A stretch of DNA of 64,000 nt from Neoroseomonas rubea (lineage in GTDB: Bacteria; Pseudomonadota; Alphaproteobacteria; Acetobacterales; Acetobacteraceae). Position numbers and translations under genes: made by a program. Below the pieces are notes generated by a model. The model saw only the letters and a list, made by a program, of their open reading frames with translations, had not been told where the DNA came from and searched no databases. The stretch covers positions 1 to 64,000 of the forward strand of contig NZ_JACADQ010000001.1 in NCBI RefSeq assembly GCF_016106015.1. Direction: 5' to 3'. Positions 25,958-55,880 of the stretch are shown piece by piece (position 1 is the stretch's first letter; every line of letters begins with the position of its first letter).

Positions 25958-25997
25958 TCAAAGTGATACGGTCGTCAGCGTAGAGGAGGACATGGGT

Positions 25998-26432
25998 ATG
26001 GCCGAACTTCGCAGCATCGAGATCGACTGGGACATCTACAAAGCCATCGAGGCCGAACGCCGGGGCTTTGATGAGCCTCAGTACTTCGCTCTCCGGCGCT
26101 TGCTGAACCTGCCGCCTCTGTCTGCACCGGCTGCGCCGCCTATGTCGCCGAAGCAAGGACGCTCTTGGCAAGCCGAAGGGGTTGTCATTCCGCACGGCAC
26201 GCCGGCAAAGATGGAGTACGGCCGGGGCTCGCAGCTCATCGAGGGCGCATTCCTCGACGGAAAGCTGGTCGTGAACGGGCGGTCGTTCTCGAATCTGTCG
26301 GCAGCTGCGGACGCATTCGCCATGACGAAGCAGGGCACCAAGACCTCGCTCAATGGCTGGAAGTACTGGCAGGTGAAGCTGCCGGGTCAGGCTGAGTGGG
26401 TGCTGCTAGACGACATGCGCAAGCGTCGTTAG
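25998..26432 (+). CDS. RHH-like plus RAMA/DUF2924-like domain protein
   Basis: A 144-residue protein. The N-terminus (SIEIDWDIYKAIEAERRGF) resembles a ribbon-helix-helix start. The C-terminal part (GSQLIEGAFLDGKLVVNGRS, then SVNGWxxW-like SLNGWKYWQVKLP) resembles RAMA/DUF2924 modules linked to restriction-modification and other conflict systems. ATG 25998 has AGGAGG at 8 nt; ATG 25992 is too close to it. Expression control by the upstream dyad is plausible. Function is inferred only from weak similarity. Confidence 0.55.
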   Translation: MAELRSIEIDWDIYKAIEAERRGFDEPQYFALRRLLNLPPLSAPAAPPMSPKQGRSWQAEGVVIPHGTPAKMEYGRGSQLIEGAFLDGKLVVNGRSFSNLSAAADAFAMTKQGTKTSLNGWKYWQVKLPGQAEWVLLDDMRKRR

Positions 26433-28059: not shown

Positions 28060-28632
28060 GTAAGCGTTCTCCCTCGACTGCCTTGCGGCGCGTGGTTCTG
28101 ACCGGCTGACCTGCGCGGCTGCTGGGCGGCGCGGATGTCGGTTGTCGCCCTTACGCGTAGGGGTATGGGCGTTGCCGGACGGTCAGCGGAGTGAGGTGAT
28201 CAGTGTGGTGCAGCGGCGGCGGCGCTGGACGACGGAGCAGAAGCTGGCGTTGGTCGAGGAGGCGATGCGTCCGGGCTCGTCGGTGGCGGGTGTGGCCGAT
28301 CGCCATGGCATGAGCCGGAGGCTGCTGTTTGAGTGGCGGCGGCAGGCTCGCGAGGGGACGATGCCGGGCCTGGTCCGGATGGAGCCGGAGGTCCCGCCCA
28401 CTCTGGTGCCGGTTCGCGTCGTCGAGGATCCGCCGCCGCGGCCGCAGGCTCCCGCATCGTCACGTCCTGGACGGCCTGCGCGGTCCGGCGCGATGATCGA
28501 GCTGGTATTGCGGAACTGCCGTGTGCTGCGTGTCTCCGAGGCGATCGCGCCGGAGGTGCTGGGGCGGTTGGCGGCGGCGCTAGACGGCTGATGCTGGCGC
28601 TGCATGCCGGTGTGCGCGTCAGCAACGCTTAC
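28060..28632 (+). mobile_element. IS66-derived mini element (tnpA only)
   Basis: Terminal GTAAGCGTT (28060-28068) and AACGCTTAC (28624-28632) are perfect inverted 9-mers matching IS66-type ends. Between them only the small tnpA gene remains; tnpB is cut after a few codons and tnpC is absent. No target duplication is visible. Probably an internal-deletion derivative. Confidence 0.6.
28196..28591 (+). CDS. IS66 family accessory protein TnpA
   Basis: A 131-residue protein with an N-terminal helix-turn-helix (RRRRWTTEQKLALVEEAMRP, SVAGVADRHGMSRRLLFEWR), a Pro-rich linker and the C-terminal IS66 TnpA strand region. GTG at 28196 is preferred from the position of GGAG; the frame extends to 28142. 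It is unlikely to be functional without TnpB and TnpC. Confidence 0.7.
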   Translation: MISVVQRRRRWTTEQKLALVEEAMRPGSSVAGVADRHGMSRRLLFEWRRQAREGTMPGLVRMEPEVPPTLVPVRVVEDPPPRPQAPASSRPGRPARSGAMIELVLRNCRVLRVSEAIAPEVLGRLAAALDG

Positions 28633-28671: not shown

Positions 28672-29601
28672 CTAATGTCCCGCTGGGCCAGAGTTTGCGC
28701 CGGCGCCGGTGAAGCGCTCAAGTCGCCCACGCAGGGCGCCCAGCTCCGGTGGCGGCGCCGACGTCAGGAGGAAGCGGATCTCTATCCTCCGATTGGCCGC
28801 CAGGTCCTCCTCGCGATCACTCTCCCTTCCGGGAACCGGGCGATCCGGACCATACCCAGAGACGCCCATCAGTGGTGCCGCGGCGGCATTGCGAAGAGAC
28901 CAGAGTTCTGGCCGCGCCGTACGTATGGCGTCATACGTGTTCAGGGCACGGCTGGCCGATAGTTCATAGTTGCCGTCCCGATCTCCGGTCCCCAGACGTC
29001 TGCGATCGGTATGGCCTTCGACGAAGACAGCATCGATGACCGCTGAGCTCTGGGGTTCGCATCCATCCCGTGTACGGCCGCCGGCTGTGAAGCAGGGAAG
29101 GATTGCCGCCAGAGAGTCAGCGAGAGCCCTGATGGCCTCGCGGGCCGGCCCTGTTGCTGGGAGGTCTGATCTCCCGGACCCGAAGAGGATCCGATCGGAA
29201 AGGCGGAGCACGCCCGTATCGGCATCGATGCTGACCGGTACGCCGCGGGCCTCCAGGGCGCTTTGGAGCGACGACAGCAGGGCCGCACGACTTGCCTGCG
29301 CATGCTCCATGGCCGCCTCCAGCCGCCTGACCTCCGCTCCCAGTCCTCCGGTGACCTCGGCCCGCAGAGTGGCGATCTCTTGCTGGGCCCGCTGCCGCAT
29401 CTCCGCGAGCTCTCGCTGCTGCGCAATACCTTGGGCTTCGGCGTCCGCCCGAATGCGTTCGGCGTCACTGGTCGCGGTGGTTAACTGCAATGCGAAGGCG
29501 AAGAGCGCGAGAATGAAAACGAACAGGAGGCCGGCCATCAGATCCGAGACGGATCCGAGATAGCCCTCCTCACTCTCCTCGCGCTCAACCCTGGTCCGCA
29601 T
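28672..29601 (-). CDS. MotB/OmpA-like (ZorB-like) peptidoglycan-binding stator partner
   Basis: A 309-residue inner-membrane protein. One N-terminal helix is preceded by Asp20 (SVSDLMAGLLFVFILALFAF), the position of the ion-carrying Asp in MotB and ZorB. A coiled coil (about 45-105) follows. The OmpA-C peptidoglycan-binding domain shows LRLSDRILFGSG, FVEGHTDRR, LSASRALNTY and ANRRIEIRF. It ends the seven-gene operon, 3 nt after the MotA/ZorA-like gene, as ZorB follows ZorA in Zorya. No catalytic domain is fused. Family is confident; its role in this locus is inferred. Confidence 0.85.
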   Translation of the reverse strand: MRTRVEREESEEGYLGSVSDLMAGLLFVFILALFAFALQLTTATSDAERIRADAEAQGIAQQRELAEMRQRAQQEIATLRAEVTGGLGAEVRRLEAAMEHAQASRAALLSSLQSALEARGVPVSIDADTGVLRLSDRILFGSGRSDLPATGPAREAIRALADSLAAILPCFTAGGRTRDGCEPQSSAVIDAVFVEGHTDRRRLGTGDRDGNYELSASRALNTYDAIRTARPELWSLRNAAAAPLMGVSGYGPDRPVPGRESDREEDLAANRRIEIRFLLTSAPPPELGALRGRLERFTGAGANSGPAGH

Positions 29602-29604
29602 GGG

Positions 29605-31458
29605 CTAGCGGGCCTCCATGGACGCCACGGGCATTGCTTGGCCATCAGACGCCGGCGGGGCTGACGACGGTACCCAAGGGTCGATGACCGATCCATCGGT
29701 ATGGGACGTCCTGGCTGCCTCGGACGACGGATCTACGGCGCTGGTAGTCGCCTCCATGAGGCGGGCGGCCGCGGCGCGAAGCTCGGCGACCAGTTCCTTC
29801 GGTGACGTGGATTCTGTGATCTTCGTGGCGGCAGCGTCCAAGGCAGAGGCGGCGTTGGCCACCAGCAGGACACCGTCGCTCGCCGCAGCCCGCAGTTGCC
29901 CCATCGTGGACGCCAGCCCCTGGACTTGGTTGCCGACGTTCGTGGCCGAGTCATCCAAGACCTTGGAGCCCGCGATCAGACGACTGGTGGCCACCGTGAC
30001 CGAATCAACAAGCGTATTCGCCGCCTGTTCGGCCGCCTCGACCAACGTGGTCTCGGCCTCCTTCCCACCTGTCGCGACGGCTTTGCCAGCGGCTCGGAGT
30101 TCACGGGCAGCATCTGCGGCGGAACGGGCTAGGTAGCCCTCGGACTTGCGGGCGCCTTCCGTGAGTCGATCGCCAGCGGCTTCACCGGCCTCCACGATCT
30201 TCTTCTCCAGCGAGGCGCCGGCGAGTTCGAGGGCAAGGCCGAAGGCGCGGGTTCCATCTGCCATCGCTTCGCGCAGACTAGTCGCGGCTCGTGCGGATGA
30301 CTCTTCCCACTTCGGCCCGGAATCAGCGATGGCAGCAGTTGCCATTGTCATGGCGTCAGCCATGCCGCGTGAGGCGTCGGAGGCGGCTTGCGCGATTTCC
30401 TGTGCTGCGGCAGAGCCTGCACCGGCTAGGCCTTCGCGGACCGTGTTCAGTGTTTGCGCCAGCCCGGCAATGTGACCCCCGACCCGCTCCATGGCGGTCG
30501 TCGCTTCCCGGATCTCGGTGCCGGCCGAAGCCTCAAGGCGATCCAAGAATGCCTTGGACATCTGTTCGAGCTGCTTGCGATTGTTCTCCGAGACCCCGGT
30601 CGTCATCCGACCTATCGCGGAGGCCAACGGCTCGATGGCGTCGCGAAGCCTTTCATTGAGAGCGGCATCGAACCGCTGGGCAAGGATCTCCGCTAGGCGC
30701 TCGGTTTCCGCGCGCCTGGCATCGATGTCACCGCGAAGGGTGGACTGGGTGTCAGCCGCCAGTTCCTGTGGCGTCAGGGGTGGTAAACGGCGGTCCAGAG
30801 CGCCGTTTAGCCGAGATAGCGCATGCTCGGTGCTGCGTGTCTCACGTCGGACCCAGGCGGCGGAGATGATCGAGAGCAGAAGAGCCACGACGGAGAAGCT
30901 GAACTTGGCCGCAGCGGTCCCGAGGAGTACGGCGAGGCCGTCCCGCACCTGAGTTGGATCTCCGGCTCCGAGAGAACCGCCGGCTGCCTTCAGGGCGAAG
31001 ACCAGGCCGAGGAAGGTGAGGATGAGCCCAACGCCTACCAGTGCGTTAGCGTGCGCGCGTGCTGATCGGAGGTCCGCCCCTGCCAGCCCAAGGAGTTCGA
31101 GGTTAAAGAAATCGCTGGCGGGCACGGTTTGGCGATAGACATCGCCCCCTCCTCGGCCCGGCGTCAGAACCGTGCTGGTCATGGCCGACCAGCTGTCCCC
31201 GAGGACCGGGTCCGTACGGAACTGTTCAGTGAGAGTTTGGTATTCTCGGGCAACGTCCCGATGGTCGCCCGCCAGCACGAGTGTCTCGCGCATTTTTTTC
31301 GCGGCGGAGCGGATTGCCCTGGCTGCCCTCGTCAGCGGCCAGGCTGCACGGATCGTCCACGCCGCAAGACCGAAGGCGACGCACAGGATGAAGGCCCAAT
31401 GTGAATAGATGTCATTCAGCGAGATCCAGATGCTGGACTGCGCGCCTACATCCCCCAT
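29605..31458 (-). CDS. MotA/TolQ/ExbB-like (ZorA-like) channel with long cytoplasmic tail
   Basis: A 617-residue membrane protein. Hydrophobic helices lie near residues 20-40, 140-158 (VGVGLILTFLGLVFAL) and 186-204 (FSFSVVALLLSIISAAW), the MotA/ExbB channel core. About 400 cytoplasmic residues follow that are helical and Ala-rich (AAQEIAQAASDASRGMADAM, LTEGARKSEGYLARSAADAA), probably a long coiled-coil tail. MotA and TolQ lack such a tail; Zorya ZorA has one. Gene order with the MotB-like partner is conserved. Most likely an ion-driven stator reaching deep into the cytoplasm. Confidence 0.83.
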   Translation of the reverse strand: MGDVGAQSSIWISLNDIYSHWAFILCVAFGLAAWTIRAAWPLTRAARAIRSAAKKMRETLVLAGDHRDVAREYQTLTEQFRTDPVLGDSWSAMTSTVLTPGRGGGDVYRQTVPASDFFNLELLGLAGADLRSARAHANALVGVGLILTFLGLVFALKAAGGSLGAGDPTQVRDGLAVLLGTAAAKFSFSVVALLLSIISAAWVRRETRSTEHALSRLNGALDRRLPPLTPQELAADTQSTLRGDIDARRAETERLAEILAQRFDAALNERLRDAIEPLASAIGRMTTGVSENNRKQLEQMSKAFLDRLEASAGTEIREATTAMERVGGHIAGLAQTLNTVREGLAGAGSAAAQEIAQAASDASRGMADAMTMATAAIADSGPKWEESSARAATSLREAMADGTRAFGLALELAGASLEKKIVEAGEAAGDRLTEGARKSEGYLARSAADAARELRAAGKAVATGGKEAETTLVEAAEQAANTLVDSVTVATSRLIAGSKVLDDSATNVGNQVQGLASTMGQLRAAASDGVLLVANAASALDAAATKITESTSPKELVAELRAAAARLMEATTSAVDPSSEAARTSHTDGSVIDPWVPSSAPPASDGQAMPVASMEAR

Positions 31459-31469
31459 CGCCCCGCACC

Positions 31470-32261
31470 TCAGCTTTGCTCGAACGGAAGAAGGAGGCGC
31501 CCCTTCTGCCGGACCTTGAAGCCCTCATCAACCAACGCTGGCTGTGCAGCGAGCGCGTCACCTCGCTCGATATCGAAAAGCCACTGCAGCCTGGTTTGCG
31601 CGGCTCGACCAGCGTCACTGGTGTAGAGGCCGAGATTGCGGCGCAGATTGAAGCCCGGGACCGCAAGCCTGTGGAAGTCGTGAGAAAAGACCAAGATGTC
31701 CCCGCGATCCGCCGACGGCGCCCTTTCCAGGGTGGATTGACCACCGGCGCCTACGCAGAAGGCTTCACCCTTCACGCTGTCCGCGAATGCGTTAAAGCTG
31801 GCCGCGCTATCAAGCGCCTGTGCTGCCCGATCGAGAACCTCCTGAAGCGTATCCCGCCTGGGCTGTAGCGCCGCCTGGCGGTGAGCCGGAAAGTAATCTC
31901 CCGGCACGGGCTCAGGCGGCACTCGGATGCCGCGCGAAGGCTGAGCGATTTCGGGGCGGACAATGCTGGGCTGTGCGTCGAACCCGTCTTGGCGCCGCGA
32001 CTCTGGGACCTCAACATGGCGGCGAGATTCATCGCGAGGCCGCTCAGGACGTCGAGGCTCCGAACCGTAGCGAAGGTCATCTTCGACCCGAAGGAGGCGT
32101 TGCTCGAAGCTTCGCCTGAATTCCGCCAACTGCGCCATGTCCGCCTTCTCGTCCCGCAGCTGTGCGATCTCGGAACGCAAAAAGAACACAGCAATCACGC
32201 TGATAATGGCCAGCAGGGTGGTGCCGCCGATCATCAGAAGGAACGTGATTTCCTGGCTCAT
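31470..32261 (-). CDS. single-span membrane protein of the tubulin/Hsp70 operon
   Basis: A 263-residue protein with one N-terminal helix (ITFLLMIGGTTLLAIISVIA) and a short coiled coil (EIAQLRDEKADMAQLAEFRR). A Pro/Arg-rich disordered middle leads to a folded C-terminal domain (RDTLQEVLDRAAQALDSAAS, GDILVFSHDFHRLAVPGF). No family was recognised. Its start overlaps the stop of the Hsp70-like gene by 4 nt, and it lies 11 nt before the ZorA-like gene. It could be an adaptor between the cytoplasmic NTPases and the membrane stator. Confidence 0.7.
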   Translation of the reverse strand: MSQEITFLLMIGGTTLLAIISVIAVFFLRSEIAQLRDEKADMAQLAEFRRSFEQRLLRVEDDLRYGSEPRRPERPRDESRRHVEVPESRRQDGFDAQPSIVRPEIAQPSRGIRVPPEPVPGDYFPAHRQAALQPRRDTLQEVLDRAAQALDSAASFNAFADSVKGEAFCVGAGGQSTLERAPSADRGDILVFSHDFHRLAVPGFNLRRNLGLYTSDAGRAAQTRLQWLFDIERGDALAAQPALVDEGFKVRQKGRLLLPFEQS

Positions 32262-35200
32262 GGCAGCCTCAGCGGAGCATCGTCGATTGCCAGCCTTCGG
32301 ACAAAGCGACGCAGGATGACTATGAATGGCGGCTCGATGGCCGAGGTGTCCTCGACAGCCGCCTGACCGGTGGCTTCTTCGTTGGCCAGGAGCTGAGCGC
32401 GATGCATCTCCTGATTCGCTTCGCCGATCAGGTTGGCGATGACGTCATCGCCGACTTTTGCACGAATGCCAATCGAAGGAAGGCGAGCGACGAACCGTCG
32501 GAACTCAGGAGCGCCCGTGATCCGGATAGGCGCCTGAAGCGCAATGTCGGCGACGCGGAAGGTAGATTCGACTTCCTTTCCGTTTTGCTCAACAGCCTCA
32601 CCGAGCGGCGGGTCCGCGTGAACGCGCCCGATGATAGATGCATCACCGTGAACCAACCCGTAAGCGACTTCTTCCTTCGGGTCGTTTGAGAAAATGATAT
32701 CCGCTCGCGGCATGGCGTCGCCAGTCGCTTCCGAAAAGAAGCGCAGCAGCTTCACCTTGTCGTCGCCCGACGTCAGCAAGTGCCGGAACAATATCGAGGC
32801 GCGGCCACCGACTGCGATCGTTACGGTGGTATTGGGCCGGGGGAGCAAAGTCCCCTTGTCGACCAACGACCGGACCACGCGTCCGGTGTAATCGAGCAGA
32901 CCGGCGAAGGCGGTGAGAGCGACGGCCCGAAGCCGCTCCGCTTCGGGGGTTCCAGCCAATACGGGTAGGTAATTCTGCACCGCGTCGGAAAACGGCTTGC
33001 TGTTGACCACGAGCTCTGTAGCGATGGTCGCCTTGTCGTCGTCGGTCGTGGCGACTTCGGTCAACGACTCAACAAGGGATTTAAGCGCCGGCACCTGGTC
33101 AGCGAGTTTGCCCAGGATGCCCGGATGACGGCGCAAATGGTCGATGAGCATGGCCCGCCCCGCCAGCTCGAAAGATCCACGCCAGGTGAGAGGTTCGGCG
33201 CCGCCCGCCGTTTGTTGAAGGATGGCGATATCCGTGGTTCCCCCACCGATATCCATGCTGATCAACCCTTCCACCGCCGCAGCGTGACGGCGGTGGATAA
33301 AGTACAAAGCGGTGCTAACCGACTCAGTCCTGAATTCCACGGAGGGATCGCTTCTCGACGTCGCTCCGGTCGTAATCTCGACGGCGATTCTCGACGCGTT
33401 ACGCGCGGCTTGCTCAAAGCCCGTCAACTGCCATGGGCGAAACGCTTCTGGATAGGAATAGCGGAAGGAGACTTGGTCGGGGTGGATGCCCCTTGCCGTC
33501 GCCTCGGCCAGCGCGAGAATCACGACCTCGGTCAGGAAGAGTTGGATGTGCTTGCGGCCGTCCTGGAGGCGCGACCATTTAAGATTGAAATGCAGGCCGG
33601 CTCGATGGTTGATCTCCTTGATCGCGTGCTCGCGCCGCTGCGCAAAATAGACGAATGCGTCGCGAAACACCTGCTCCCCACCTGACCTACTCGCAATCGA
33701 GCGGGTACGGAGAATCGTCTGAAACGGAATTGGGACGTCGGTAGCGGGCAGGAACTCGCGATCGATCAAGTCGCGTCCCTCTTCCGTGTCACTATACGTC
33801 ACGACGTGGCGGGCCTTTATAAGGAGTGGCTCCGGGTTCCCGCCGGACCGCTGAAGGTAGACAGACGTGTTGGTCGTGCCGAAGTCGATCCCGATGATTG
33901 CCTGGCCCGCTCCGCTGGACGACACTTGCTCCGCCATTGGCATCATGACGAGGCCGGCTACCTTGCGATCGTTCTTATGCCGGTACTCGATCACGGTAGC
34001 CTCTGGCGCGGCGGAAAGCTGATGTATTCCCTGAGCGATCTGTCTGTCATCGCGTAGCCAGGTGACGTCGCCAATCCCCCGCAGGTCGCCATCTCTCACG
34101 GCTCTCGCCCCGGCCACTGCGCTGAAGCCGTCGTTGGCGTCCAATCGCCTGGCGATGGCGTCACCCGATACGACAGCAACAGGCGTGTACTGCACATCGA
34201 TCGTCGCGCTTGTGAAGCCGAAGTGAAGCTTCCACCACTCAGCCTTGAAGTTCGGCCAAACAGACATGAGCTCTGGAGGCTCGAAGCTCGCCTCGTCGCG
34301 GTAAAGGCGCGATAGGTTAATGCGCGTTCGCGACTTCTCTAGCGTCAAGGTCAGGTGAAGCGTCGGACCATCGCCTCCCGGGATAAGCCGGCATGACGTG
34401 GCTAGGTCCGCGCCCGACATCAACGCGAGCACGATAGGGCTGAGCGGGAGGATATGCTCACGTGCGCCTGGTGGGTGCTGATCGAAGCCGCGCTCGGACC
34501 CGATGCCAACCACGCGATAGAGCGTCGGCAGGAAAAGCTCGTCGGGGGTTAGGATGAGATACCCCTTGCCCTGGGCTTCGGACCTAATGGTGTCGATAAG
34601 CCCGGGATTTGCCTTGAGCATGCCCAGGGTAATCGTTTCCCAGATCCGGATGTTTCCCGCCGGTACCCCCATGAGACGGTCGAGATCTTGATCGACCAGA
34701 ATGACGCCCTTGAGCGACGTACCAATCTCCGGGCGGATCTGGAGCAGCGTGTCGGCCACCGCCCGGCCGGCAAGCGCGACCCGCTCCGGCGAGTTCATGG
34801 CGGAGAAGATTGGCAAGTTTGGCAACTGAAGGGGCGAGTGCACCGGGCTAAACGTTGGCTCTGACCCGCTGGGCCGCGCCTCGTTTGCGAACGACTGGAG
34901 AAGCCCAATGAGAATGGCGATGTCATGGACATGCGCGTGAGTTCGAAGCTCTTGCGTCATGCGATCGAGGTACCGCACGAGGGCCCACCGATCTTCTACG
35001 CCGATGCCGCCGATCTTCAGGGGATCCTGGAACCGTCCATCGCGCAGCCACGGAATTGAGGGCAGCTGGACATGATCGGCGAGCGAACGGCTGGGCGCGA
35101 GCAGCGTCAACGGCTGGGCAATCGCGATGACCTTCTTCTCCTCGCGGAGGATCGCAACCTCGTCAATCTCCCGGTTCTCGAGAAGGCTGGCCAGGGGGCG

Positions 35201-35569
35201 TAGCCGGCGAACGATATCCGCCCAAGGCCCGGGCGGCAGTTCTGAGAGACGGAAAACTTCGGACGTCAGATTGGGGACATACGCGGCGGCGAGGGCAACG
35301 GTTACCAACAAGCCACGCCATTCCCCGACGGCCCGGACATGGAGCGGATGGCGCTCGTTGACCAGGGCATCATGGAAGACGGTGATGGCGGCCCACACGT
35401 CGGGGACGGAGACGATATCCGCTCCATGCGACAGACTATCGGGCGTGTTCAGGCCCTGAGCGATCACCCGCAGAGGATCAGACGTCGGACCCATGGGATA
35501 CCAGGCACCGGCGCCAGGCAGCGGTGAGACCCGGTGTTCGGGACGAAGCGGAGGAAGGAAAGGGGCCAT
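32258..35569 (-). CDS. large protein with C-terminal Hsp70/actin-type ATPase domain
   Basis: An 1103-residue protein. Residues 1-550 form a unique region with no recognised domain. From about 557 it is an Hsp70/actin-superfamily ATPase: phosphate-1 IIGIDFGTTNTSVYL (about 558-572), phosphate-2 LISMDIGGGTTDIAIL (about 769-784) and the adenosine motif VTIAVGGRAS (about 916-925). No canonical Hsp70 substrate-binding domain is evident; about 180 residues follow the ATPase. The overall plan, a large protein with an Hsp70-like domain, recalls SrfB-type proteins, but identity is uncertain. It is coupled to both neighbours within the operon. Confidence 0.82.
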   Translation of the reverse strand: MAPFLPPLRPEHRVSPLPGAGAWYPMGPTSDPLRVIAQGLNTPDSLSHGADIVSVPDVWAAITVFHDALVNERHPLHVRAVGEWRGLLVTVALAAAYVPNLTSEVFRLSELPPGPWADIVRRLRPLASLLENREIDEVAILREEKKVIAIAQPLTLLAPSRSLADHVQLPSIPWLRDGRFQDPLKIGGIGVEDRWALVRYLDRMTQELRTHAHVHDIAILIGLLQSFANEARPSGSEPTFSPVHSPLQLPNLPIFSAMNSPERVALAGRAVADTLLQIRPEIGTSLKGVILVDQDLDRLMGVPAGNIRIWETITLGMLKANPGLIDTIRSEAQGKGYLILTPDELFLPTLYRVVGIGSERGFDQHPPGAREHILPLSPIVLALMSGADLATSCRLIPGGDGPTLHLTLTLEKSRTRINLSRLYRDEASFEPPELMSVWPNFKAEWWKLHFGFTSATIDVQYTPVAVVSGDAIARRLDANDGFSAVAGARAVRDGDLRGIGDVTWLRDDRQIAQGIHQLSAAPEATVIEYRHKNDRKVAGLVMMPMAEQVSSSGAGQAIIGIDFGTTNTSVYLQRSGGNPEPLLIKARHVVTYSDTEEGRDLIDREFLPATDVPIPFQTILRTRSIASRSGGEQVFRDAFVYFAQRREHAIKEINHRAGLHFNLKWSRLQDGRKHIQLFLTEVVILALAEATARGIHPDQVSFRYSYPEAFRPWQLTGFEQAARNASRIAVEITTGATSRSDPSVEFRTESVSTALYFIHRRHAAAVEGLISMDIGGGTTDIAILQQTAGGAEPLTWRGSFELAGRAMLIDHLRRHPGILGKLADQVPALKSLVESLTEVATTDDDKATIATELVVNSKPFSDAVQNYLPVLAGTPEAERLRAVALTAFAGLLDYTGRVVRSLVDKGTLLPRPNTTVTIAVGGRASILFRHLLTSGDDKVKLLRFFSEATGDAMPRADIIFSNDPKEEVAYGLVHGDASIIGRVHADPPLGEAVEQNGKEVESTFRVADIALQAPIRITGAPEFRRFVARLPSIGIRAKVGDDVIANLIGEANQEMHRAQLLANEEATGQAAVEDTSAIEPPFIVILRRFVRRLAIDDAPLRLP

Positions 35570-35572
35570 GGA

Positions 35573-37090
35573 TCAGGCTCCTCCGTTGCGCCGAGGCGAG
35601 CAGGCGTTGTGAATAGATGCGATGAGACGACCGATGCCGGCGCTTTCGGAGGCCGGAGGATCGTAGCTCAGTGAGGTAAACAGATCGGCAAGCGTAATGC
35701 CGTCGATTCCCGGAACGAGATTGCGGAAGTCCGAACTCGAAACCGAGGTCAAGGGCACGTGGTCGATGCTCTGCTGGTTCCAGTCACGAGCCAGAAGGCT
35801 GTCCGACAGCAGGTCGAGACGCCGACCCGGACCGGCACCCAGCCGGTTAAGGGCTACGAACCAGCGCAACAGGTCCTCCGAGGCCTTGGTCATCAGCGTG
35901 ATCGCTCGCTGGGTGTCGTCATCCCTCGGCTCTTTGCCCGGCGGTTGCTTGACCTGCCGCTTGAACCAGGTTTCCCGTCGGAAGCTCTGCCATGCATCTC
36001 CCATCAACGCCGGCGCGTATTGCTGACGCCATGCGACCGCGGTCCGGATGGCCGCGGCGACGTGACGGCGCACCGTGCCCCTGGCTCCGGCATCAGGCAG
36101 GTCGTCCCAGCTCACGACGTCCTTTCCGTCAGTGCGGGTTGCAACGATGCCCCGGTTGGGGTCGCTACGGGCAGCCAGGAAATCCAGTGCGGCCAGGCCG
36201 CCAACGAACTCCGGGAGCAGCGGGGGATTGGCTTGGTTGGTACCGCCGTCGGAGTAAGCATTGAACTGGACCAAGGGATCGCTGCCCAGCAGATAAAGCG
36301 TGTCGAAGACCTGCTCCTTGCTGAACAGGGTGGCGTAGTACTCGAGCGCACCGCGGGCCTGCATCAGGAACACGGAAGAATCCGGCCGGATGGCAGGCCC
36401 TTCGCCGGGCGGAGGCGTCGGAAAGGCGAAGTAAGGCAACATGAGAACGCCGGCCAGCTTCACTTGCCCACTGAGGCCGCGATCCTTGATCGCCTTGCGG
36501 AGAAGCCGTGCGACGGTCGGAAATCCGGAAGCGCCGGTGCCGCCAAAAACGGAGGCGGCGATGAGGACGCGGACCTCCTCTCCCTGCCCTCCGGACTGAA
36601 GCGCGCCCAGGAGGTCATGCCAAACCGGCGAATTCGCGGTGACGCCCTGAAGGGTGAGGGCAGCACCGAGGGCAGGCCGCTGACGAAAACCTTCGTCGAG
36701 TTGAAGCCGCCTCTCCTCTGCAGAGAACAGAACGTCCGCGAGAGCTGCCTGTTGCCAGGGCAGCCCGCCATAGGCGATCGACCGTTCTAGGGTGGTGGAC
36801 GACTTCTCCTCCGGCGCCCAGGCCCAGCCCGCCTTTGGTTTCTCGACGTGAGTGCCGAGTAGCTTGCACGGCCCGAGGTCATTGGCGCCTTGGGTGCGAA
36901 GTGCTCGGCGAACCTCATTCATATCCTCGAGCACGCGCACAGCGCGTCCGGCATTGCCGTTCGAGCGATCCTGATCGAGCAATCCGATCCACGCCTCATC
37001 CGGGCCAAGGCCGCAGAAGGACAGTCGGGCAAAGGCCTCGACGCATTTCGCACCGGTGCCGCCAATGCCGAGCAGGAAGTTCGCGGTCAT
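35573..37090 (-). CDS. tubulin/FtsZ-like GTPase family protein
   Basis: A 505-residue cytoplasmic protein. The N-terminal loop FLLGIGGTGAKCVEA (residues 5-19) and the later VFGGTGASGFPTVARLLRKA (182-201) correspond to the nucleotide-binding loops of the tubulin/FtsZ superfamily. The second matches the tubulin-signature glycine-rich loop (T4). It resembles the tubulin-like families found next to VWA and OmpA genes rather than cell-division FtsZ. The ATG at 37090 overlaps the preceding gene by 4 nt. Likely GTP binding and possibly polymerising; neither is shown here. Confidence 0.78.
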   Translation of the reverse strand: MTANFLLGIGGTGAKCVEAFARLSFCGLGPDEAWIGLLDQDRSNGNAGRAVRVLEDMNEVRRALRTQGANDLGPCKLLGTHVEKPKAGWAWAPEEKSSTTLERSIAYGGLPWQQAALADVLFSAEERRLQLDEGFRQRPALGAALTLQGVTANSPVWHDLLGALQSGGQGEEVRVLIAASVFGGTGASGFPTVARLLRKAIKDRGLSGQVKLAGVLMLPYFAFPTPPPGEGPAIRPDSSVFLMQARGALEYYATLFSKEQVFDTLYLLGSDPLVQFNAYSDGGTNQANPPLLPEFVGGLAALDFLAARSDPNRGIVATRTDGKDVVSWDDLPDAGARGTVRRHVAAAIRTAVAWRQQYAPALMGDAWQSFRRETWFKRQVKQPPGKEPRDDDTQRAITLMTKASEDLLRWFVALNRLGAGPGRRLDLLSDSLLARDWNQQSIDHVPLTSVSSSDFRNLVPGIDGITLADLFTSLSYDPPASESAGIGRLIASIHNACSPRRNGGA

Positions 37091-37605
37091 ACGGGCACCC
37101 ACGAGCGAAGAGGAATGGCAGGTCGCATCATTCTTTCGACGAACAGCCCTGCGAACTTCCAGAAGACGATGACTGCCCCGAGCGCGGTGAAGAGCGACCA
37201 CTGCAGGGCGATGTCTTGGCTCCCGTCCCTAAACCAGACTCCCATAGCGACGTAGGCGCCGGCACCGGCCGCTGCCGCCACGGCGATGAACGCGCCCCAG
37301 AAGACGACATGCCGCCACCCACTTCCCGCCCCACCCGGCCCGGTCGGACGCACGAGATGGAAGCACGAGACCAGCAGGTAGCCGATCGCTACCGCGCAGG
37401 TCGCCAGCAATAGTGCGGTCTGGACCGCTTCCTTGCCTTCGGGGAGATAGCGCGCCCGGAAAAGCTCCATGTCAGCTAGCCGGTCAGGCTGGAAAATGCT
37501 GGCCGCAATGGATTCTGGAAAGTACAGCGGCGAGAACCATGCGGCAGCAATGAGGGCAGCACAGGCGAGCCCTCCCCAGACAGTCGGCATGAGCCAATGG
37601 CGCAT
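37087..37605 (-). CDS. four-helix inner-membrane protein of the tubulin/Hsp70 operon
   Basis: A 172-residue protein with about four transmembrane helices (WGGLACAALIAAAWFSPLYF; ALLLATCAVAIGYLLVSCFH; VVFWGAFIAVAAAAGAGAYV; SLFTALGAVIVFWKFAGLF) and a loop between helices 1 and 2. No family was recognised. Translational overlap with the tubulin-like gene suggests it is that protein's membrane anchor or partner. Confidence 0.72.
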   Translation of the reverse strand: MRHWLMPTVWGGLACAALIAAAWFSPLYFPESIAASIFQPDRLADMELFRARYLPEGKEAVQTALLLATCAVAIGYLLVSCFHLVRPTGPGGAGSGWRHVVFWGAFIAVAAAAGAGAYVAMGVWFRDGSQDIALQWSLFTALGAVIVFWKFAGLFVERMMRPAIPLRSWVPV

Positions 37606-37618
37606 GAACGTTTCCTCG

Positions 37619-39046
37619 TTATCTTGGAACTTGGAAGGCCAGCACCGCCTCCCCGACGGGTTGCGGCTGGAAATCCTCGCGGACGATGGCCTCGAGCATT
37701 GTCGCGACTTCCCGCAAGTTCAGTGTCTTGAACAGGCGCGGCCGTTCGAGCGTGAACCGCTCGGCATCACGGGCTTCCAGGTTCCACGCTCGCGTCCACG
37801 CGGTCGCCGCGGGAGCATCGGAAAGGCCTATCGCCGACACCTTGATCTGAAGCACGAAAGGCACGCCAGGAAGCATCCGGGAGAGTACGCCTCGGCCCCC
37901 AACGGAAATCACGCTCGATCCGGTCGACGTCGTGATTGCCGCGAGTTGCCCTGGGGCGCTTCGAAAGGGAAGCCAACGCTCCCCACATGCATTGCGGGGC
38001 GAGGTCTCCGCCCAAATCATTTCTTCGATCTGGAACTCGTCGGGGGACAGGACGGGGCCTTGGGCGAGTTCAGTGAGAGGCAACGTTGCCGCAGCCGTAC
38101 CCTCACCCCTTGGGAACGAGACCTGACGAACATCAGATCCCATCTCGGGCGACAAGGACGACGCCACCACCGCCGGCGCCGTCGGCCTCAGGTCGAGGGC
38201 AAGCGGCCCGCCTGTGATCGGCGTCTTGGTGTAGATCGTCGCGTGCGACCGTGGCGATCCATCCGCCGTCGGCGGCAGCGGCGAGAGGAGCTCGACCTCT
38301 ATGCGACGGATTAGGCGGGCGACGGCTGAATGCGGTCCAGTCACAATGACATAAAAAGGCCGCTCGGCGGCACCGTCATAGGTGCGGACTACGGGAATAT
38401 CGAAGATAGTCCCCGAGAATCCTGAACGGATTCCCATCAACCCGACGCTGCGGCCGTCGGCGAGAATTCGGCTAAGGGGAGCGCGGATCGCAGAGGCCCC
38501 ACCGAAAACCTCTTCGCCCGTGAGGAAGAGATCAGTGGCCAGGATCCCGATTTCTTCACCCGGCAAGGCTTCCATGCGCGACAGGGCTTCGCCGATGCGG
38601 CTTTCGGTATCTCGATAGAACTCGGGTCGGGTGGCGCGCTGCAGTTCCGATAGGGAAAGCGCCCGGATGGTGCGCCCGAATCCGAAGGCCGAAACACGAT
38701 CGCTGACCTGCGACGCAATCTGCGGAAGGCTCAGGACCAACTCACGGAAGGTCCGCGGTTCAGGCAGAGGCTGAGCTGGCTGGGTCTGTTGCTGGCGCTG
38801 CGGGGAACGTTGTTGCGTGGGGCGGGTGTTTCCCGAACTTGGCGCTGCTACATAGCCCGCCATGCTGCCGGAAACGTCGAGCAGAACCGTTGCTGCGGGC
38901 GCCCGTTGGGCCTGCTGTGCTGCGACCGGGCGACGCCTCAGCACCGTGACTCCGGACGGGAGGCACGCCAGGGCCGGCGCTGGCAACAGCGGCGCTATGA
39001 CCATCCCGGTTGCCAGGGCGACCATGGATCTGCGTCTCAGTGCCAT
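37619..39046 (-). CDS. exported VWA-domain protein, first gene of the operon
   Basis: A 475-residue protein. A signal peptide (MALRRRSMVALATGMVIAPL...ALA) is followed by a VWA domain with the MIDAS motif DVSGSMAGY (about residue 55) interrupted by a Gln/Pro-rich insert. The remainder has beta-rich segments. Export to the periplasm is predicted, so it could sense or bind envelope ligands metal-dependently. The ATG at 39046 is chosen from the signal peptide; the frame is open to 39142. It heads the operon opposite a divergent gene. Confidence 0.78.
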   Translation of the reverse strand: MALRRRSMVALATGMVIAPLLPAPALACLPSGVTVLRRRPVAAQQAQRAPAATVLLDVSGSMAGYVAAPSSGNTRPTQQRSPQRQQQTQPAQPLPEPRTFRELVLSLPQIASQVSDRVSAFGFGRTIRALSLSELQRATRPEFYRDTESRIGEALSRMEALPGEEIGILATDLFLTGEEVFGGASAIRAPLSRILADGRSVGLMGIRSGFSGTIFDIPVVRTYDGAAERPFYVIVTGPHSAVARLIRRIEVELLSPLPPTADGSPRSHATIYTKTPITGGPLALDLRPTAPAVVASSLSPEMGSDVRQVSFPRGEGTAAATLPLTELAQGPVLSPDEFQIEEMIWAETSPRNACGERWLPFRSAPGQLAAITTSTGSSVISVGGRGVLSRMLPGVPFVLQIKVSAIGLSDAPAATAWTRAWNLEARDAERFTLERPRLFKTLNLREVATMLEAIVREDFQPQPVGEAVLAFQVPR

Positions 39047-39171
39047 GCGGCAGAATCCCGACTGACAGTCATTGATGGCGCCCCTATACTTTGTACCGAT
39101 CGTTAAAAAAAGAGGAACTTTTGTCGTTTTGGTATTTGGCATATACTGGCAACTGGAAGCGGGACTGGTGC
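39047..39171. promoter_or_regulatory. divergent promoter region of the tubulin/Hsp70 locus
   Basis: About 125 bp of notably AT-rich DNA lies between the VWA gene (left) and the GYF-like gene (right). It includes TTGTCG (39121) and TATACT (39142) with a short 15-nt spacing for rightward transcription, and a T-rich tract at 39101-39128. It must hold promoters for both directions, which suggests coordinated control. The exact elements are uncertain. Confidence 0.45.
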
Positions 39172-40032
39172 ATGATCGAAATCCGTAGAGACGGCGGCGC
39201 GATCGTTACGATCCGCAGTCTTGAGACAGTTGGACGGCTACTCAGCGAGGGTGGCATAACCCCAACGACGCCTGTACGGAACCAGGGAGAAACGAAATTC
39301 ATCCCTGCGTCCGACCATCCAGGTATTCGGTCGGCGGCAAACATGCTCGGACTCTCATTCGGGCAAGCCGATAGCCCGCAACCAGAGCCGGTAGCCGATC
39401 CGGTTCCGACGCCCCCGCAGGAGGCGCCGGCAGCGGCTCAACCCGCGCCGACACCGGCCGCAAAGCCATCGGCTGCAACAGCGGCCGTGACGCCACCTCA
39501 CCCTTCATTGCCTGGAACCGCTCCCACTCCCGGACGATCGAACTCCCCGTGGATAGTGCAACAGATCTCCCCAGGTCCGCAGCATCGAACACAGAGCGGC
39601 GGCGGCACAAGTCGCCCTGGATCAATCGTTCCGCCACTCGAGGCGCCGGTTCAAAGACCACCATGGGCAGGATCGCAGTCACGAACGACGGAGACGCCGG
39701 CGCCTGGCGTGCTGACCTGGAGCGCTACATTCGGAAACGCGCTACCCCGCCTCCTGATCGCCTGGGGCGCTGGGCTCTTCGTCACCGGCGTGGGCAGCGG
39801 AATGGCGTCGTCCGGTGTCTTCGCTTTCTTCGGCGCAGTCGTCGCCGCAGGGGTCGGTTTCGTTCTCGGCCAGCGGATCTACGAAGCCGGCGCCAGAATA
39901 GGCTCTGCCGTTGCGACGGCCGCCGGCTTGTTCGCCCTGGCGTCTACTGCGCTGGGTGGCAGCGCCTTCGTCGTGGGGGCGGTGACGGCATTCGCTGTGT
40001 ATCTGGGCTGGAATCGCAAGGACAAGAAGTGA
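39172..40032 (+). CDS. membrane protein with possible N-terminal GYF-like domain
   Basis: A 286-residue protein. The N-terminus (LLSEGGITPTTPVRNQGETK) is weakly GYF_2-like. A Pro/Ala-rich linker (about residues 70-180) and three or four C-terminal hydrophobic helices (LPRLLIAWGAGLFVTGVGSG, VFAFFGAVVAAGVGFVLG, AAGLFALAS, FVVGAVTAFAVYLGW) follow. GYF-type modules commonly bind proline-rich segments, and the VWA and single-span proteins of the divergent operon have such segments. Start ATG 39172; the frame is open to 39091. Confidence 0.6.
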   Translation: MIEIRRDGGAIVTIRSLETVGRLLSEGGITPTTPVRNQGETKFIPASDHPGIRSAANMLGLSFGQADSPQPEPVADPVPTPPQEAPAAAQPAPTPAAKPSAATAAVTPPHPSLPGTAPTPGRSNSPWIVQQISPGPQHRTQSGGGTSRPGSIVPPLEAPVQRPPWAGSQSRTTETPAPGVLTWSATFGNALPRLLIAWGAGLFVTGVGSGMASSGVFAFFGAVVAAGVGFVLGQRIYEAGARIGSAVATAAGLFALASTALGGSAFVVGAVTAFAVYLGWNRKDKK

Positions 40033-40637: not shown

Positions 40638-41038
40638 GTGTCCCCGGACGTGGTGTAGGATGGCCGGAGCCTTGGACGCGTAGCGAAGCCCCTGGCTGAG
40701 CGGAGCGGAGCGCCCCGGGCGTGCCCCGCGGTGATGGACAGCGCCGCCGAGGACGTGCTCGCCTACATGCACTTCCCCGCCGCGCATCGGGCCAAGCTGC
40801 ACTGCACAAACCCGATCGAACGCCTCAATGGCGAGATAAAGCGCCTCACCGACCGCGCCGGCGCCATCCTGCTCGAGCAGTCCGACGACTGGGCTACCCA
40901 GCGCTCCCGCGACATGACGCTGGAACCCATCGGCGCCGTTAGCGACACTCCCCATGTCAGCCTGTCCGCCGTAACAGCCTGACACGGCGGCCCAGCCCGC
41001 CAAGGATCATCGCGCTCCTACACCACGCGGCGGGACAC
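40638..41038 (+). mobile_element. internally deleted IS256-family element
   Basis: The left end GTGTCCCCGGACGTGGTGTAGGA (40638-40660) and the right end (41016-41038) are inverted copies with a few mismatches. CGTGGTGTAGGA/TCCTACACCACG is a perfect 12-bp core. Only about 400 bp remain, carrying a deleted 3' piece of the transposase. No target duplication is evident. Confidence 0.7.
40731..40982 (+). pseudogene. IS256-family transposase C-terminal fragment with internal deletion
   Basis: Encodes EDVLAYMHFPAAHRAKLHCT, NPIERLNGEIKRLTDRAG, then directly AILLEQSDDWATQRSRDMTL. The 15-25 residues that normally separate these blocks (the VGIFPN region) are missing, so the fragment has an in-frame deletion as well as loss of the N-terminal two thirds. 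Confidence 0.8.
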
Positions 41039-53817: not shown

Positions 53818-54552
53818 TCAGCGCCGCGCAGCTTTCCAGCTGTCGGCGAGGCCCCGCAGGCCGAGTAGGCGCACGAGGATGATCTCGTCCGGCACTGGGG
53901 CTGTGATGTGCTCTCCGCGTCCGAAGGCGGCGGCGGCGGCGAGCACGCCCTTCACGCGCTCGCCGCCATCCCGTTTCCGCCACTCACGCGCCCAGGTTTC
54001 GATCGCATCCACGGACTGTCCGACAGCTGTTGCGACATGCGTGCGCACGGCAGAAACAGGGCGCCCCGCGGCTTTCTCCGCCGCGATGAAGGCGAGCAGC
54101 GACTGTTCAATCTCTCGCCGGCTCCGCGGGTTCCGCCCGTAGCCTGCAGCCTTCTCGGCGGGCACCAGGATCGACGGTGGCGGACTGGCATCGTTCAACG
54201 CGTGCAGGCCGAACATCAAGGCGCCTAAGACAGCCTGCGGCACCACCGCGTAGGCCTCGGCCATGCAGGCCGCAGCATCCTCACGCCACGCCGCCGGATT
54301 GTCAGCGGCAAGCTGGTCCCATTCCTCGGGCGGTCGCCGCACTGGCAGCGTCCAGCTGGCCACGGCGCGGGAGAGGACCAGCGCGGCGGCCTGCGCAAGG
54401 TCCCGCGCATCCTGCTTTGGGGCGTCGCCGGCCTCGGCCGCAATGTCCAGCGCGGCGTCCAGCATGTCGTGCGCCGCCTGGCGGTCGAGGCCGCCGACTG
54501 CTTCGCGCAGCAGCACCGCCAGTCGGTCGGCGGGTCGAGACGCGTCGGTCAC
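53818..54552 (-). CDS. hypothetical protein coupled to the island integrase
   Basis: A 244-residue helical protein (EAVGGLDRQAAHDMLDAALD, EEWDQLAADNPAAWREDAAA, RSRREIEQSLLAFIAAEKAA). Its GTG start overlaps the integrase stop by 4 nt, so the two are co-expressed. No family recognised. Confidence 0.6.
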   Translation of the reverse strand: MTDASRPADRLAVLLREAVGGLDRQAAHDMLDAALDIAAEAGDAPKQDARDLAQAAALVLSRAVASWTLPVRRPPEEWDQLAADNPAAWREDAAACMAEAYAVVPQAVLGALMFGLHALNDASPPPSILVPAEKAAGYGRNPRSRREIEQSLLAFIAAEKAAGRPVSAVRTHVATAVGQSVDAIETWAREWRKRDGGERVKGVLAAAAAFGRGEHITAPVPDEIILVRLLGLRGLADSWKAARR

Positions 54553-55880
54553 GATTTTCTCCGCGTCCGCGCCTCGGCCAGGCTGGCAACCGCCGCCGCC
54601 GACTTCGCGCAGTGCTCGGCCCACGCGTTCATCATCGGTCGGCGCTGATCGAGCATGTCTTCGCGGGCATAGGCGGCGCGAACCTTGTCCTTGTCGCTGT
54701 GGGCCATGGCCAGTTCGCTCAGAGGATCGGGGAAGCCAGCGGCAAGGCTCCACCCCTTGAATGATGCGCGGAAACCGTGCGGCACTATCGGCCGGCCTTC
54801 CAGGTCGCGCCACCGCGGCGGCTCGCCTTCGTCCAGGCCATCGAAGCACATGCCGCGGACGAGCATCGAAATGGACATATCGCTCAGCGCCGTGCCGGTG
54901 CGTGCCCCGGGGAAGACATGGCTATCGGCGCCCTTCCGCAAGTCCTCGACCTCAGCGAGGACGGCCAGGGCAGCATCGCTCAGCGGAACACGATGAAGTC
55001 GCAAGCCCTTCATGCGCGGGGCGGGGACGGACCATACCTTCTCATCCAGGTTGATTTCCCGCCAAAGCGCGCCGCGCACTTCGCCTGACCTGGCAGCGGT
55101 CAGGATCGCGAAGCGCAGGGCCTTCGCCGCGACGCCTTCCTTACCCCTCAGCGCGGTCATGAACTGCCCCATTTGCTGCCAGGCCAGGGCAGGGTGGTGG
55201 ACAACCGCCCTGACCTTGCGAGCCTTCGGAAGCTGGTGTTCCAGGTGGCCCTTCCAGCGGGCCGGGTTCTCTCCACTGCGCCAGCCTGTCACCTTCGCCG
55301 CATCTAGCACCGCTTCGATCCGCTGCCGGAGGCGGGTGCCCGTCTCGGGCGTGCGGGACCAGACGGGGCGGAGGACTGCCAACACATCCTCTGTGGTCAC
55401 GGCGGCCACCGGCTTTTGACCGATCTGCGGATAGGCATAGGCGGCGAGGGTAGCTGTCCACTGCGCCGCGTGCTTTCCGCTCCGCCAGCCCGGCTTCTTC
55501 GCCTCGATCAGCCTCTCGGCGGCGGCCTTGAACGTGCGCTCGGAGGCCTCGGCGGCCTGCTGTGTCGCGGCAGCGCGGGCTTCCTCCCGAACTGCAATCG
55601 GGTCCTTGCCTTCCCGGAGTAGTGCCTTGGCAGCGCGCGCCCGATCCCGCGCCATAGCCAAGGTGACGCCGCCGGCGGCCGTTTCCTTTGCGTCTACAGC
55701 CACAGGGCCGAGGCCCATCTCGCGAGCCTTTCCGGCGAGTTGGAAGCGGAAGAGCCACGACTTGGCGCCGCCCTTGGTGATCTGTAGGGCCAGCCCTTCG
55801 CCGTCATGAAATAGAACCGGGCGGGACTTGTCGCCGGGATGGTTCAAAGCCTTGATCATTGGGGCGGAAAGCTTGGCCAC
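54549..55880 (-). CDS. int: tyrosine integrase of the genomic island
   Basis: A 443-residue P4/DUF4102-type integrase. The N-terminal arm-binding domain is ALNHPGDKSRPVLFHDGEGL. Catalytic residues of the tyrosine recombinase are visible: Arg in LTAARSGEVRGALW, the HxxR box PHGFRASFKGWS, a further His in MAHSDKDKVR and the nucleophile in AAYARED. GTG start at 55880. It lies 189 bp inside attR and reads inward, with TTACCCC repeats between. Presumed to have inserted the island in tRNA-Ser. Confidence 0.93.
   Translation of the reverse strand: MAKLSAPMIKALNHPGDKSRPVLFHDGEGLALQITKGGAKSWLFRFQLAGKAREMGLGPVAVDAKETAAGGVTLAMARDRARAAKALLREGKDPIAVREEARAAATQQAAEASERTFKAAAERLIEAKKPGWRSGKHAAQWTATLAAYAYPQIGQKPVAAVTTEDVLAVLRPVWSRTPETGTRLRQRIEAVLDAAKVTGWRSGENPARWKGHLEHQLPKARKVRAVVHHPALAWQQMGQFMTALRGKEGVAAKALRFAILTAARSGEVRGALWREINLDEKVWSVPAPRMKGLRLHRVPLSDAALAVLAEVEDLRKGADSHVFPGARTGTALSDMSISMLVRGMCFDGLDEGEPPRWRDLEGRPIVPHGFRASFKGWSLAAGFPDPLSELAMAHSDKDKVRAAYAREDMLDQRRPMMNAWAEHCAKSAAAVASLAEARTRRKS

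What the first reader, a model, noticed from the sequence alone, without database searches (positions are those of the whole stretch)
28672..39046. Seven-gene operon joining a tubulin-like GTPase, an Hsp70-like ATPase, a VWA protein and a ZorAB/MotAB-like motor
Seen: seven same-strand genes with overlaps or gaps of 14 nt or less encode an exported VWA protein, a four-helix protein, a tubulin/FtsZ-like protein, a 1103-residue protein with an Hsp70/actin ATPase, a single-span protein, a MotA-like channel with a tail of about 400 residues and a MotB/OmpA-like partner with Asp20 in its helix. Known: Zorya ZorAB is a MotAB-like ion-driven motor in phage defence, with ZorC/D/E effectors. As I recall, Makarova and Koonin (2010) predicted a membrane-remodelling system linking FtsZ-like, VWA, GTPase and OmpA-family proteins. 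Inference: this locus combines both themes, with an actin-superfamily ATPase rather than Zorya effectors, and sits on an island. It may be an uncharacterised defence or envelope-remodelling machine.
Basis: partly seen in the sequence, partly recalled or inferred. Interest (0 to 1): 0.93.

Follow-up and report, generated by a model that had tools for sequence, protein, structure and literature searches.

The report
Ion-motor, tubulin and Hsp70-like machine
A seven-gene bacterial operon joins an ion-driven membrane motor of the kind used in the Zorya anti-virus system to a tubulin-like protein, an actin/Hsp70-like ATPase and an exported sensor-like protein; similar sets recur in distant bacteria, so it looks like a real but undescribed machine, perhaps for responding to attack on the cell envelope.

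Summary
Seven intact minus-strand genes (28672-39046) are separated by 3-13 nt or overlap by 4 nt. Profiles and structure prediction confirm a ZorA/ZorB motor, an FtsZ/tubulin GTPase fold and an actin/Hsp70 ATPase fold.

VWA, four-span, tubulin, Hsp70-like and single-span genes form a recurrent core. Of 65 homologous loci with tubulin and Hsp70-like genes, 13 (eight phyla) carry a ZorAB-like pair, 12 of them downstream, mostly in the slot it has here; 37 have room but no motor; 15 cannot be judged. The window's motor groups with Zorya type I motors, its tubulin with motor-less proteobacterial relatives. So this motor was acquired or swapped separately from those elsewhere, which argues for functional coupling over chance.

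It is not Zorya: ZorC and ZorD are absent.

Function is inferred: a peptidoglycan-tethered motor acting on a tubulin/Hsp70 assembly in response to envelope or phage stress. Defence is plausible (about 0.5) but unproven; genes beside the homologues show no enrichment for known defence families. In the open literature searched I found the parts and a 2010 FtsZ-like/VWA/OmpA prediction, not this combination.

The parts
37619..39046 (-). Exported VWA protein (475 aa from the inner ATG; the ORF opens at 39142)
   Evidence: MIDAS motif DVSGS plus second Asp conserved in homologues; one N-terminal hydrophobic stretch; homologues beside the tubulin gene in many loci
37087..37605 (-). Small four-span membrane protein (172 aa)
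   Evidence: four hydrophobic spans; a small multi-span protein in the same slot in many loci
35573..37090 (-). Tubulin/FtsZ-like GTPase (505 aa)
   Evidence: Tubulin_2 29.7 bits; model pLDDT 88.2; FtsZ 2vxy Z 17.1, rmsd 3.0, 186 aligned within residues 1-343; GTP-loop residues G10, G11, G13, S180, F182-G184, G186, A187 and D41 in 52 of 52
32258..35569 (-). Hsp70/actin-fold ATPase with a 550-residue N-terminal region (1103 aa)
   Evidence: model pLDDT 85.5; MreB 4czi Z 18.0, DnaK about Z 17, residues about 554-985; Foldseek DnaK 1.8e-10; D562, G564, K664, E749, D773, D780 in 43 of 43
31470..32261 (-). Single-span protein with a conserved C-terminal domain (263 aa)
   Evidence: one span; matched at 7.8e-18 by a profile built from genes after the Hsp70-like gene in other loci, of which the window copy was one seed
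29605..31458 (-). ZorA-type motor subunit with a tail of about 400 residues (617 aa)
   Evidence: PADLOC ZorA1 2.3e-40 over residues 20-570; three spans; groups with Zorya I ZorA, SH-aLRT 90
28672..29601 (-). ZorB-type motor subunit: one span with Asp20, OmpA-like domain (309 aa)
   Evidence: PADLOC ZorB1 7.1e-71; Asp20 in 15 of 16; inside the Zorya I clade, SH-aLRT 97
39175..40032 (+). Divergent GYF_2-like plus membrane-span protein; possible accessory, membership not shown
   Evidence: GYF_2 E 5.3e-4, below cut-off; BLASTP finds no similarity to the neighbour gene in the two loci compared
28142..28591 (+). Transposase HTH_Tnp_1 next to zorB (island; not part of the machine)
   Evidence: Pfam 1.1e-14
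40731..40982 (+). Mutator-family transposase fragment (island; not part of the machine)
   Evidence: Pfam 3.3e-9
54549..55880 (-). Phage-type integrase, probably of the island
   Evidence: Pfam Phage_integrase, Arm-DNA-bind_3, Phage_int_M

Best explanation
This is a mobile, envelope-spanning NTP-driven machine. Supported by sequence or prediction: a five-gene core (exported MIDAS-type VWA protein, four-span protein, tubulin-like GTPase, Hsp70/actin-fold ATPase, single-span protein) has taken up a ZorAB-type ion motor in the slot after the single-span gene, and motors of another lineage fill that slot in distant bacteria. Inferred: the periplasmic VWA protein and the peptidoglycan-binding ZorB detect a disturbance of the envelope such as phage entry; ion flow past ZorB Asp20 turns or rearranges the ZorA pentamer; its long cytoplasmic tail then recruits or activates the tubulin/Hsp70 pair, which assembles or remodels protein in an NTP-dependent way under the membrane at that site, in place of the Zorya effectors. 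The most likely use is a conflict or infection response. The architecture and functional coupling are about 0.85 likely, the defence role about 0.5.
For: Motor in 13 of 65 core loci from eight phyla. Of 24 motor proteins scanned (12 A, 12 B), 12 match PADLOC ZorB1 and 12 match Pfam OmpA, which I take to be the B subunits; 9 match one ZorA1 model and 7 Pfam MotA_ExbB. MotA-to-MotB spacing runs from overlaps to 14 nt. Profiles trained without them also find the pair after the Hsp70-like gene in 2 near-identical of 5 IMG/VR loci. Trees: the motor label needs 7 changes (gains or losses) on the tubulin tree, at least 6 forced by starred branches; window ZorB lies inside Zorya I, SH-aLRT 97. Coincidence unlikely: ZorB at E<=1e-8 in 12 of 387 and the core in 2 of 387 alphaproteobacterial genomes (two samples drawn the same way), and no genome but the window's own is on both lists. 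Folds and nucleotide sites supported. Mobile setting: integrase and transposases here, an ORF that looks like an integrase by eye near the G673 copy, cyanobacterial plasmids. Genes beside the core vary between relatives: trypsin, TerD, zinc ribbon, ion channel, LprI. Published: ZorA tail, peptidoglycan binding and ion flow are important in Zorya I and II (PMC11890865, passages).
Against: No enrichment of known defence genes beside the homologues. More core loci with room lack a motor (37) than have one (13), so the core can probably work without one. No nuclease or other known killing domain was found in the operon. The flank families listed are mostly housekeeping, and the G436 copy sits among metabolic genes by eye. 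The A subunits also match coiled-coil models of other systems (LmuB, JetC), so part of their ZorA score may be coiled coil. The motor-finding profiles were seeded with the motor loci themselves. Foldseek TM-scores were low (0.2-0.26 over the query). The trees are quick searches with long branches. No experiment and no predicted contact between the ZorA tail and the core.
Confidence: 0.55

Rival explanations
1. Envelope maintenance rather than defence: the machine remodels or stabilises the membrane and peptidoglycan, as Makarova and Koonin proposed for FtsZ-like-1 operons; the motor supplies ion-driven force across the envelope.
For: Exported VWA, OmpA domain, several membrane spans; flanks not enriched in defence genes; wide cyanobacterial presence without a motor; published prediction (PMC2875224).
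Against: Rare in Alphaproteobacteria (2 of 387); not found in 34 genus mates; island setting; the window's motor comes from the Zorya I lineage; partner genes vary.
Confidence: 0.3
2. Chance neighbours: a Zorya I remnant (zorAB without zorCD) landed next to an unrelated tubulin/Hsp70 module through transposition.
For: Closest kin of the motor are Zorya I; a transposase gene lies next to zorB; zorC and zorD are missing; the nearest core relatives lack a motor where this can be judged.
Against: 11-nt junction and intact reading frames; the same position holds a motor in loci of eight phyla; two near-identical IMG/VR contigs show a motor after the Hsp70-like gene; Asp20 kept.
Confidence: 0.1
3. 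Partner-swapping conflict system of the kind described by Kaur et al. (2020), with tubulin, Hsp70 and surface VWA, in which ZorAB is merely one optional effector or sensor. This overlaps with the best explanation; it differs in making the motor dispensable.
For: Shared part list: extracellular vWA, tubulin theme, Hsp70 theme and GYF domains fused to trypsin or a TM-rich region (PMC7159879 section 29); trypsin-like genes beside some cores; core without motor in 37 loci.
Against: No DO-GTPase or GAP1 recognised in the window genes tested with Pfam or among the 25 listed of 154 Pfam families in flanks. Section 29 lists the tubulin and Hsp70 themes as non-overlapping, though the paper's overview speaks of GTPases combined with both; here they are joined.
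Confidence: 0.35

Closest known systems
Zorya type I (ZorABCD)
   Same: ZorA and ZorB: long profile matches, Asp, long tail, tree position inside Zorya I
   Different: No ZorC or ZorD found in the window; partners are tubulin-, Hsp70-like and VWA proteins
FtsZ-like-1 / VWA / OmpA predicted membrane-remodelling system (Makarova and Koonin 2010, PMC2875224)
   Same: Tubulin_2-type GTPase fold, VWA and OmpA-domain protein in one operon
   Different: No P-loop GTPase or kinase in the operon; the tubulin protein is 505 aa, about half the 1051-aa protein typified there; the words Hsp70 and MotB do not occur in that text. Its additional files were not readable, so the same loci may be listed there
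DO-GTPase/GAP1-N2 conflict systems (Kaur et al. 2020, PMC7159879)
   Same: Tubulin, Hsp70, extracellular vWA, GYF/TM and trypsin partners
   Different: DO-GTPase and GAP1 not found here; MotA and TolQ do not occur in that text and 'ZorA' matches only an author's surname
CoCoNuT type IV restriction systems (PMC11090510)
   Same: Hsp70-like and VWA parts (passages)
   Different: Built on McrB/McrC homologues, not seen here; no tubulin, Zorya or MotA in that text

Membership tests
Zorya type I | ZorA and ZorB motor subunits | tested here: met
   PADLOC 2.3e-40 and 7.1e-71; tree
Zorya type I | ZorC and ZorD next to zorAB | tested here: not met
   tblastn of eight ZorC/ZorD sequences against the window: best E 0.005, at 24 kb and not beside zorB; ZorA and ZorB positive controls 1e-31 and 1e-63
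Zorya type II or III | ZorE (HNH) or ZorF/ZorG | tested here: not met
   None among PADLOC hits of the seven operon proteins, E up to 1; other window genes were not scanned with PADLOC
FtsZ-like-1 system (Makarova and Koonin) | Tubulin_2-type protein with VWA gene | tested here: met
   Tubulin_2 29.7 bits, cut-off 27; VWA MIDAS
FtsZ-like-1 system (Makarova and Koonin) | Associated P-loop GTPase or Ser/Thr kinase (frequent there, not universal) | tested here: not met
   Pfam on the seven operon proteins and the neighbours tested shows neither; not all window genes were scanned
FtsZ/tubulin superfamily | GTPase fold with GGTG loop | tested here: met
   Z 17.1 to FtsZ; the 50 rows shown all belong to the superfamily; loop in 52 of 52, with one Thr replaced
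FtsZ/tubulin superfamily | Filament formation | not testable with these tools
   Needs purified protein
Hsp70/actin ATPase superfamily | Actin-fold ATPase with two phosphate loops | tested here: met
Hsp70 chaperone proper | Substrate-binding domain | tested here: inconclusive
   Most rows cover only residues about 554-985; the 550-residue N-terminal region was barely tested
DO-GTPase/GAP1 conflict system | DO-GTPase and GAP1 genes | tested here: inconclusive
   Not seen in the window genes tested with Pfam, nor in the 25 listed of 154 families in flanks
Anti-phage defence system | Protects against phage | not testable with these tools
   Needs plaque assays

The most novel reading that the evidence does not exclude
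A previously undescribed class of envelope-spanning immune or repair machine in which ion flow through a ZorAB motor mechanically drives a tubulin/Hsp70 cytoskeletal assembly: a membrane motor coupled to a bacterial cytoskeleton, present in nine phyla counting the window's, with the motor acquired or swapped at least twice.
Probability: 0.35. Interest if true: 0.95.

Novelty: new variant of a known kind. Interest (0 to 1): 0.82.

Why it matters
ZorAB is known as the motor of one immune system with nucleic-acid-targeting partners. A recurrent pairing with a tubulin-like GTPase and an actin/Hsp70 ATPase would show that the motor is a more general power or sensor module. It would also give the orphan FtsZ-like (Tubulin_2) family, predicted in 2010 and still without a known role in what I read, a concrete and testable partner.

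Tried and rejected
Single-sequence scan of genome contigs with the Hsp70-like protein found no relative; the tubulin alignment succeeded. Viral contigs with the single tubulin sequence found none; with the alignment, five. The phage collection gave no match to the tubulin protein.

Idea that the divergent GYF_2 gene is a conserved sixth core gene: dropped, as two relatives show no similarity and the neighbours there are other families. I had first noted by eye that the L011 neighbour was GYF-like.

Idea of a Zorya I remnant with zorCD decayed nearby: no convincing trace of zorC or zorD.

Defence-island enrichment. 137 flank proteins from the homologous loci gave three PADLOC families at 1e-12: RT-Protease_XI by two models in 3 members each, C3a214 in 1. 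137 control genes gave 21 families, many of them broad housekeeping look-alikes; by the table about a dozen members, which cannot be separated exactly. The control came from 20 alphaproteobacterial stretches at positions I picked, so it is of other taxa, and there was no positive control: the test shows lack of enrichment, not absence. Rows dropped: of 178 eligible flank genes 30 were thinned at random to 148 and 11 more left out by hand for the residue limit; of 152 control genes 140 were selected and 137 scanned.

Foldseek for the tubulin model also listed short-chain dehydrogenases at similar E; in the second alignment the 50 rows shown are all FtsZ/tubulin. For the 65-locus count, L001-L006 were not counted, L077 and L079 were left out as copies of L076, and 18 of the 80 scanned loci had no recognised Hsp70-like gene near the tubulin gene, some of them on short contigs.

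Literature searches for this combination: (open-licence library only). The Nature 2025 Zorya paper is not held, so whether it mentions such loci is unknown. Supplementary files could not be read.
Full report
What is there. The minus strand of 28672-39046 holds seven intact genes in one tight operon. ZorA and ZorB match PADLOC type I models over most of their length (2.3e-40, 7.1e-71). The tubulin-like protein passes the Pfam Tubulin_2 cut-off, and its AlphaFold2 model (pLDDT 88.2) aligns best with FtsZ, Z 17.1 over 186 residues; the 50 rows shown all belong to the FtsZ/tubulin superfamily and mostly cover residues 1-343, so the C-terminal part has no assigned fold. Foldseek alone gave tubulins at about 1e-4 to 1e-3 with low TM-scores, mixed with short-chain dehydrogenases. 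The 1103-residue protein had only weak sequence matches, but its model (pLDDT 85.5) contains an actin/Hsp70 domain at about 554-985 (MreB Z 18.0, FtsA 17.9, DnaK about 17; Foldseek DnaK 1.8e-10). Key nucleotide-site residues are invariant in 43 of 43 Hsp70-like and 52 of 52 tubulin-like sequences. The VWA protein's MIDAS motif is kept in 52 of 57 aligned homologues.

A recurrent core. Gene profiles built in a script show the order VWA, four-span, tubulin, Hsp70-like, single-span in many of them, in Cyanobacteria, Bacillota, Pseudomonadota and others; in many Cyanobacteria the VWA gene is turned round. The core also lies on plasmids of Picosynechococcus relatives and Gloeothece. Eighteen of the 80 loci, mostly Selenomonadaceae, have no recognised Hsp70-like gene near the tubulin gene.

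The motor recurs. Motor pairs were first noticed by position and membrane spans, then given profiles seeded with 12 of them plus the window. In 65 loci with both tubulin and Hsp70-like genes (60 of the 80, plus five from other searches), 13 carry a ZorA-like and ZorB-like pair on the same strand: 12 downstream, one upstream; 37 have at least 4.5 kb of room and none; 15 cannot be judged. The phyla are Acidobacteriota, Bacillota, Bacteroidota, Cloacimonadota, Poribacteria, Cyanobacteriota, Gemmatimonadota and Nitrospirota. In 11 of the 12 downstream cases the motor directly follows the gene after the Hsp70-like gene; in two of these (L040, L084) that gene is not matched by the single-span profile, and in the twelfth (L065) an opposite-strand gene intervenes. 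As an outside check, 12 of the 24 motor proteins scanned match PADLOC ZorB1 and 12 match Pfam OmpA, the number of B subunits; ZorA matches are weaker and partly coiled coil. A profile built only from the other loci finds the window's ZorB at 1.4e-18 and its ZorA at 4.7e-9 among eight window proteins. In the IMG/VR collection, two near-identical contigs of the five loci found have VWA, a small gene, tubulin, Hsp70-like, MotA-like (2e-15) and MotB-like (6e-28) in a row, without a single-span gene between; they were not used to build the profiles.

Separate acquisition. ZorB places the window inside a clade of alphaproteobacterial Zorya I motors (SH-aLRT 97), away from the motors of the other tubulin/Hsp70 loci; ZorA agrees with less support (90). 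The window's tubulin lies among proteobacterial relatives in which no motor was found (96; two of the nine rows could not be judged), and the motor label needs seven changes on that tree, at least six forced by starred branches; these may be gains or losses. Both trees are quick searches with long branches. So the window's motor was acquired or swapped separately; whether the other motors were gained once or more is open. Of 11 other alphaproteobacterial genomes with a close ZorB, eight have ZorD nearby, one has only a weak ZorC match, two have neither, and none has tubulin- or Hsp70-like genes in the stretch read, three stretches being short contigs. In a class sample of 387 genomes the core occurs in two, the window's own included. 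Coincidence of two such rare things 11 nt apart is very unlikely, and recurrence in other phyla makes it more so.

Setting. The operon's third-position GC (0.69-0.74) is well below that of most called genes in the first 16 kb. Transposase genes lie on both sides and an integrase at 54549-55880. The Hsp70-like gene was not found in 34 genus mates and 24 other family members. The G673 copy has no motor and, at the start of its contig, an ORF that resembles a phage-type integrase by eye; the G436 copy has no motor and sits among metabolic genes by eye. Genes beside the wider set of homologues are ordinary: few defence families (control), and a mix led by pentapeptide and trypsin families, five members each of 137.

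How it may work. In Zorya, peptidoglycan binding by ZorB, ion flow through the motor and the ZorA tail are important for function (PMC11890865, passages), and membrane disturbance by phage is the proposed trigger (PMC12904381, passages). The same motor parts are present here. The simplest reading is that the tail, which serves the nucleic-acid-targeting partners in Zorya, here acts on the tubulin/Hsp70 pair. Which stimulus, which ion and which output remain inference. The varied genes beside the core in relatives (trypsin, TerD, zinc ribbon, ion channel, LprI), and the optional motor, fit the constant-core, variable-partner pattern that Kaur et al. describe for conflict systems (PMC7159879, passages and section 29), but their GTPase and GAP1 were not found here.

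Novelty. Makarova and Koonin (PMC2875224; parts 1 to 3 of 5 of the main text read, and a term search) grouped FtsZ-like-1, VWA and OmpA-family genes as a predicted membrane-remodelling system; they describe the OmpA proteins as barrel-forming porins, adhesins or enzymes, and the text names neither Hsp70 nor MotB. Their additional files could not be read. The searches listed under Tried and rejected found no paper that reports the combination. I therefore file it as a new variant: a known motor and a known but orphan cytoskeletal family in a machine not described in what I could search.

Noticed in passing
L108 and L110 (unnamed Alphaproteobacteria): ZorAB pairs with no ZorC or ZorD found nearby, among genes such as a histidine kinase, gyrase A and penicillin amidase; close relatives of each other: perhaps another non-Zorya use of the motor.
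   Followed up: partly
L148 and L149 (IMG/VR contigs): Contigs classed as viral carry the core with the motor directly after the Hsp70-like gene; whether they are truly viral was not tested.
   Followed up: partly
L024, L029, L032, L042 (Cyanobacteria): A second Hsp70-like gene and further single-span-domain genes follow the core where other phyla can have the motor.
   Followed up: no
L051, L055 (Selenomonadaceae): Genes with a similar N-terminal region by eye, repeated in L051, follow the core; they recall effector-associated domains.
   Followed up: no
L072: A contig labelled Euryarchaeota has a tubulin very close to a cyanobacterial one on the tree; perhaps a binning error.
   Followed up: no
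window 25992-26432: Small protein with a sub-threshold RAMA domain, a domain named after restriction enzymes.
   Followed up: no
window 32258-35569, protein residues 1-550: Large N-terminal region of the Hsp70-like protein with several nearly invariant tryptophans and prolines; its fold was barely tested.
   Followed up: no
L013, L014, L090: Trypsin-like peptidase genes beside the core in L013 and L014 (Pfam); a gene in L090 looks trypsin-like by eye.
   Followed up: partly
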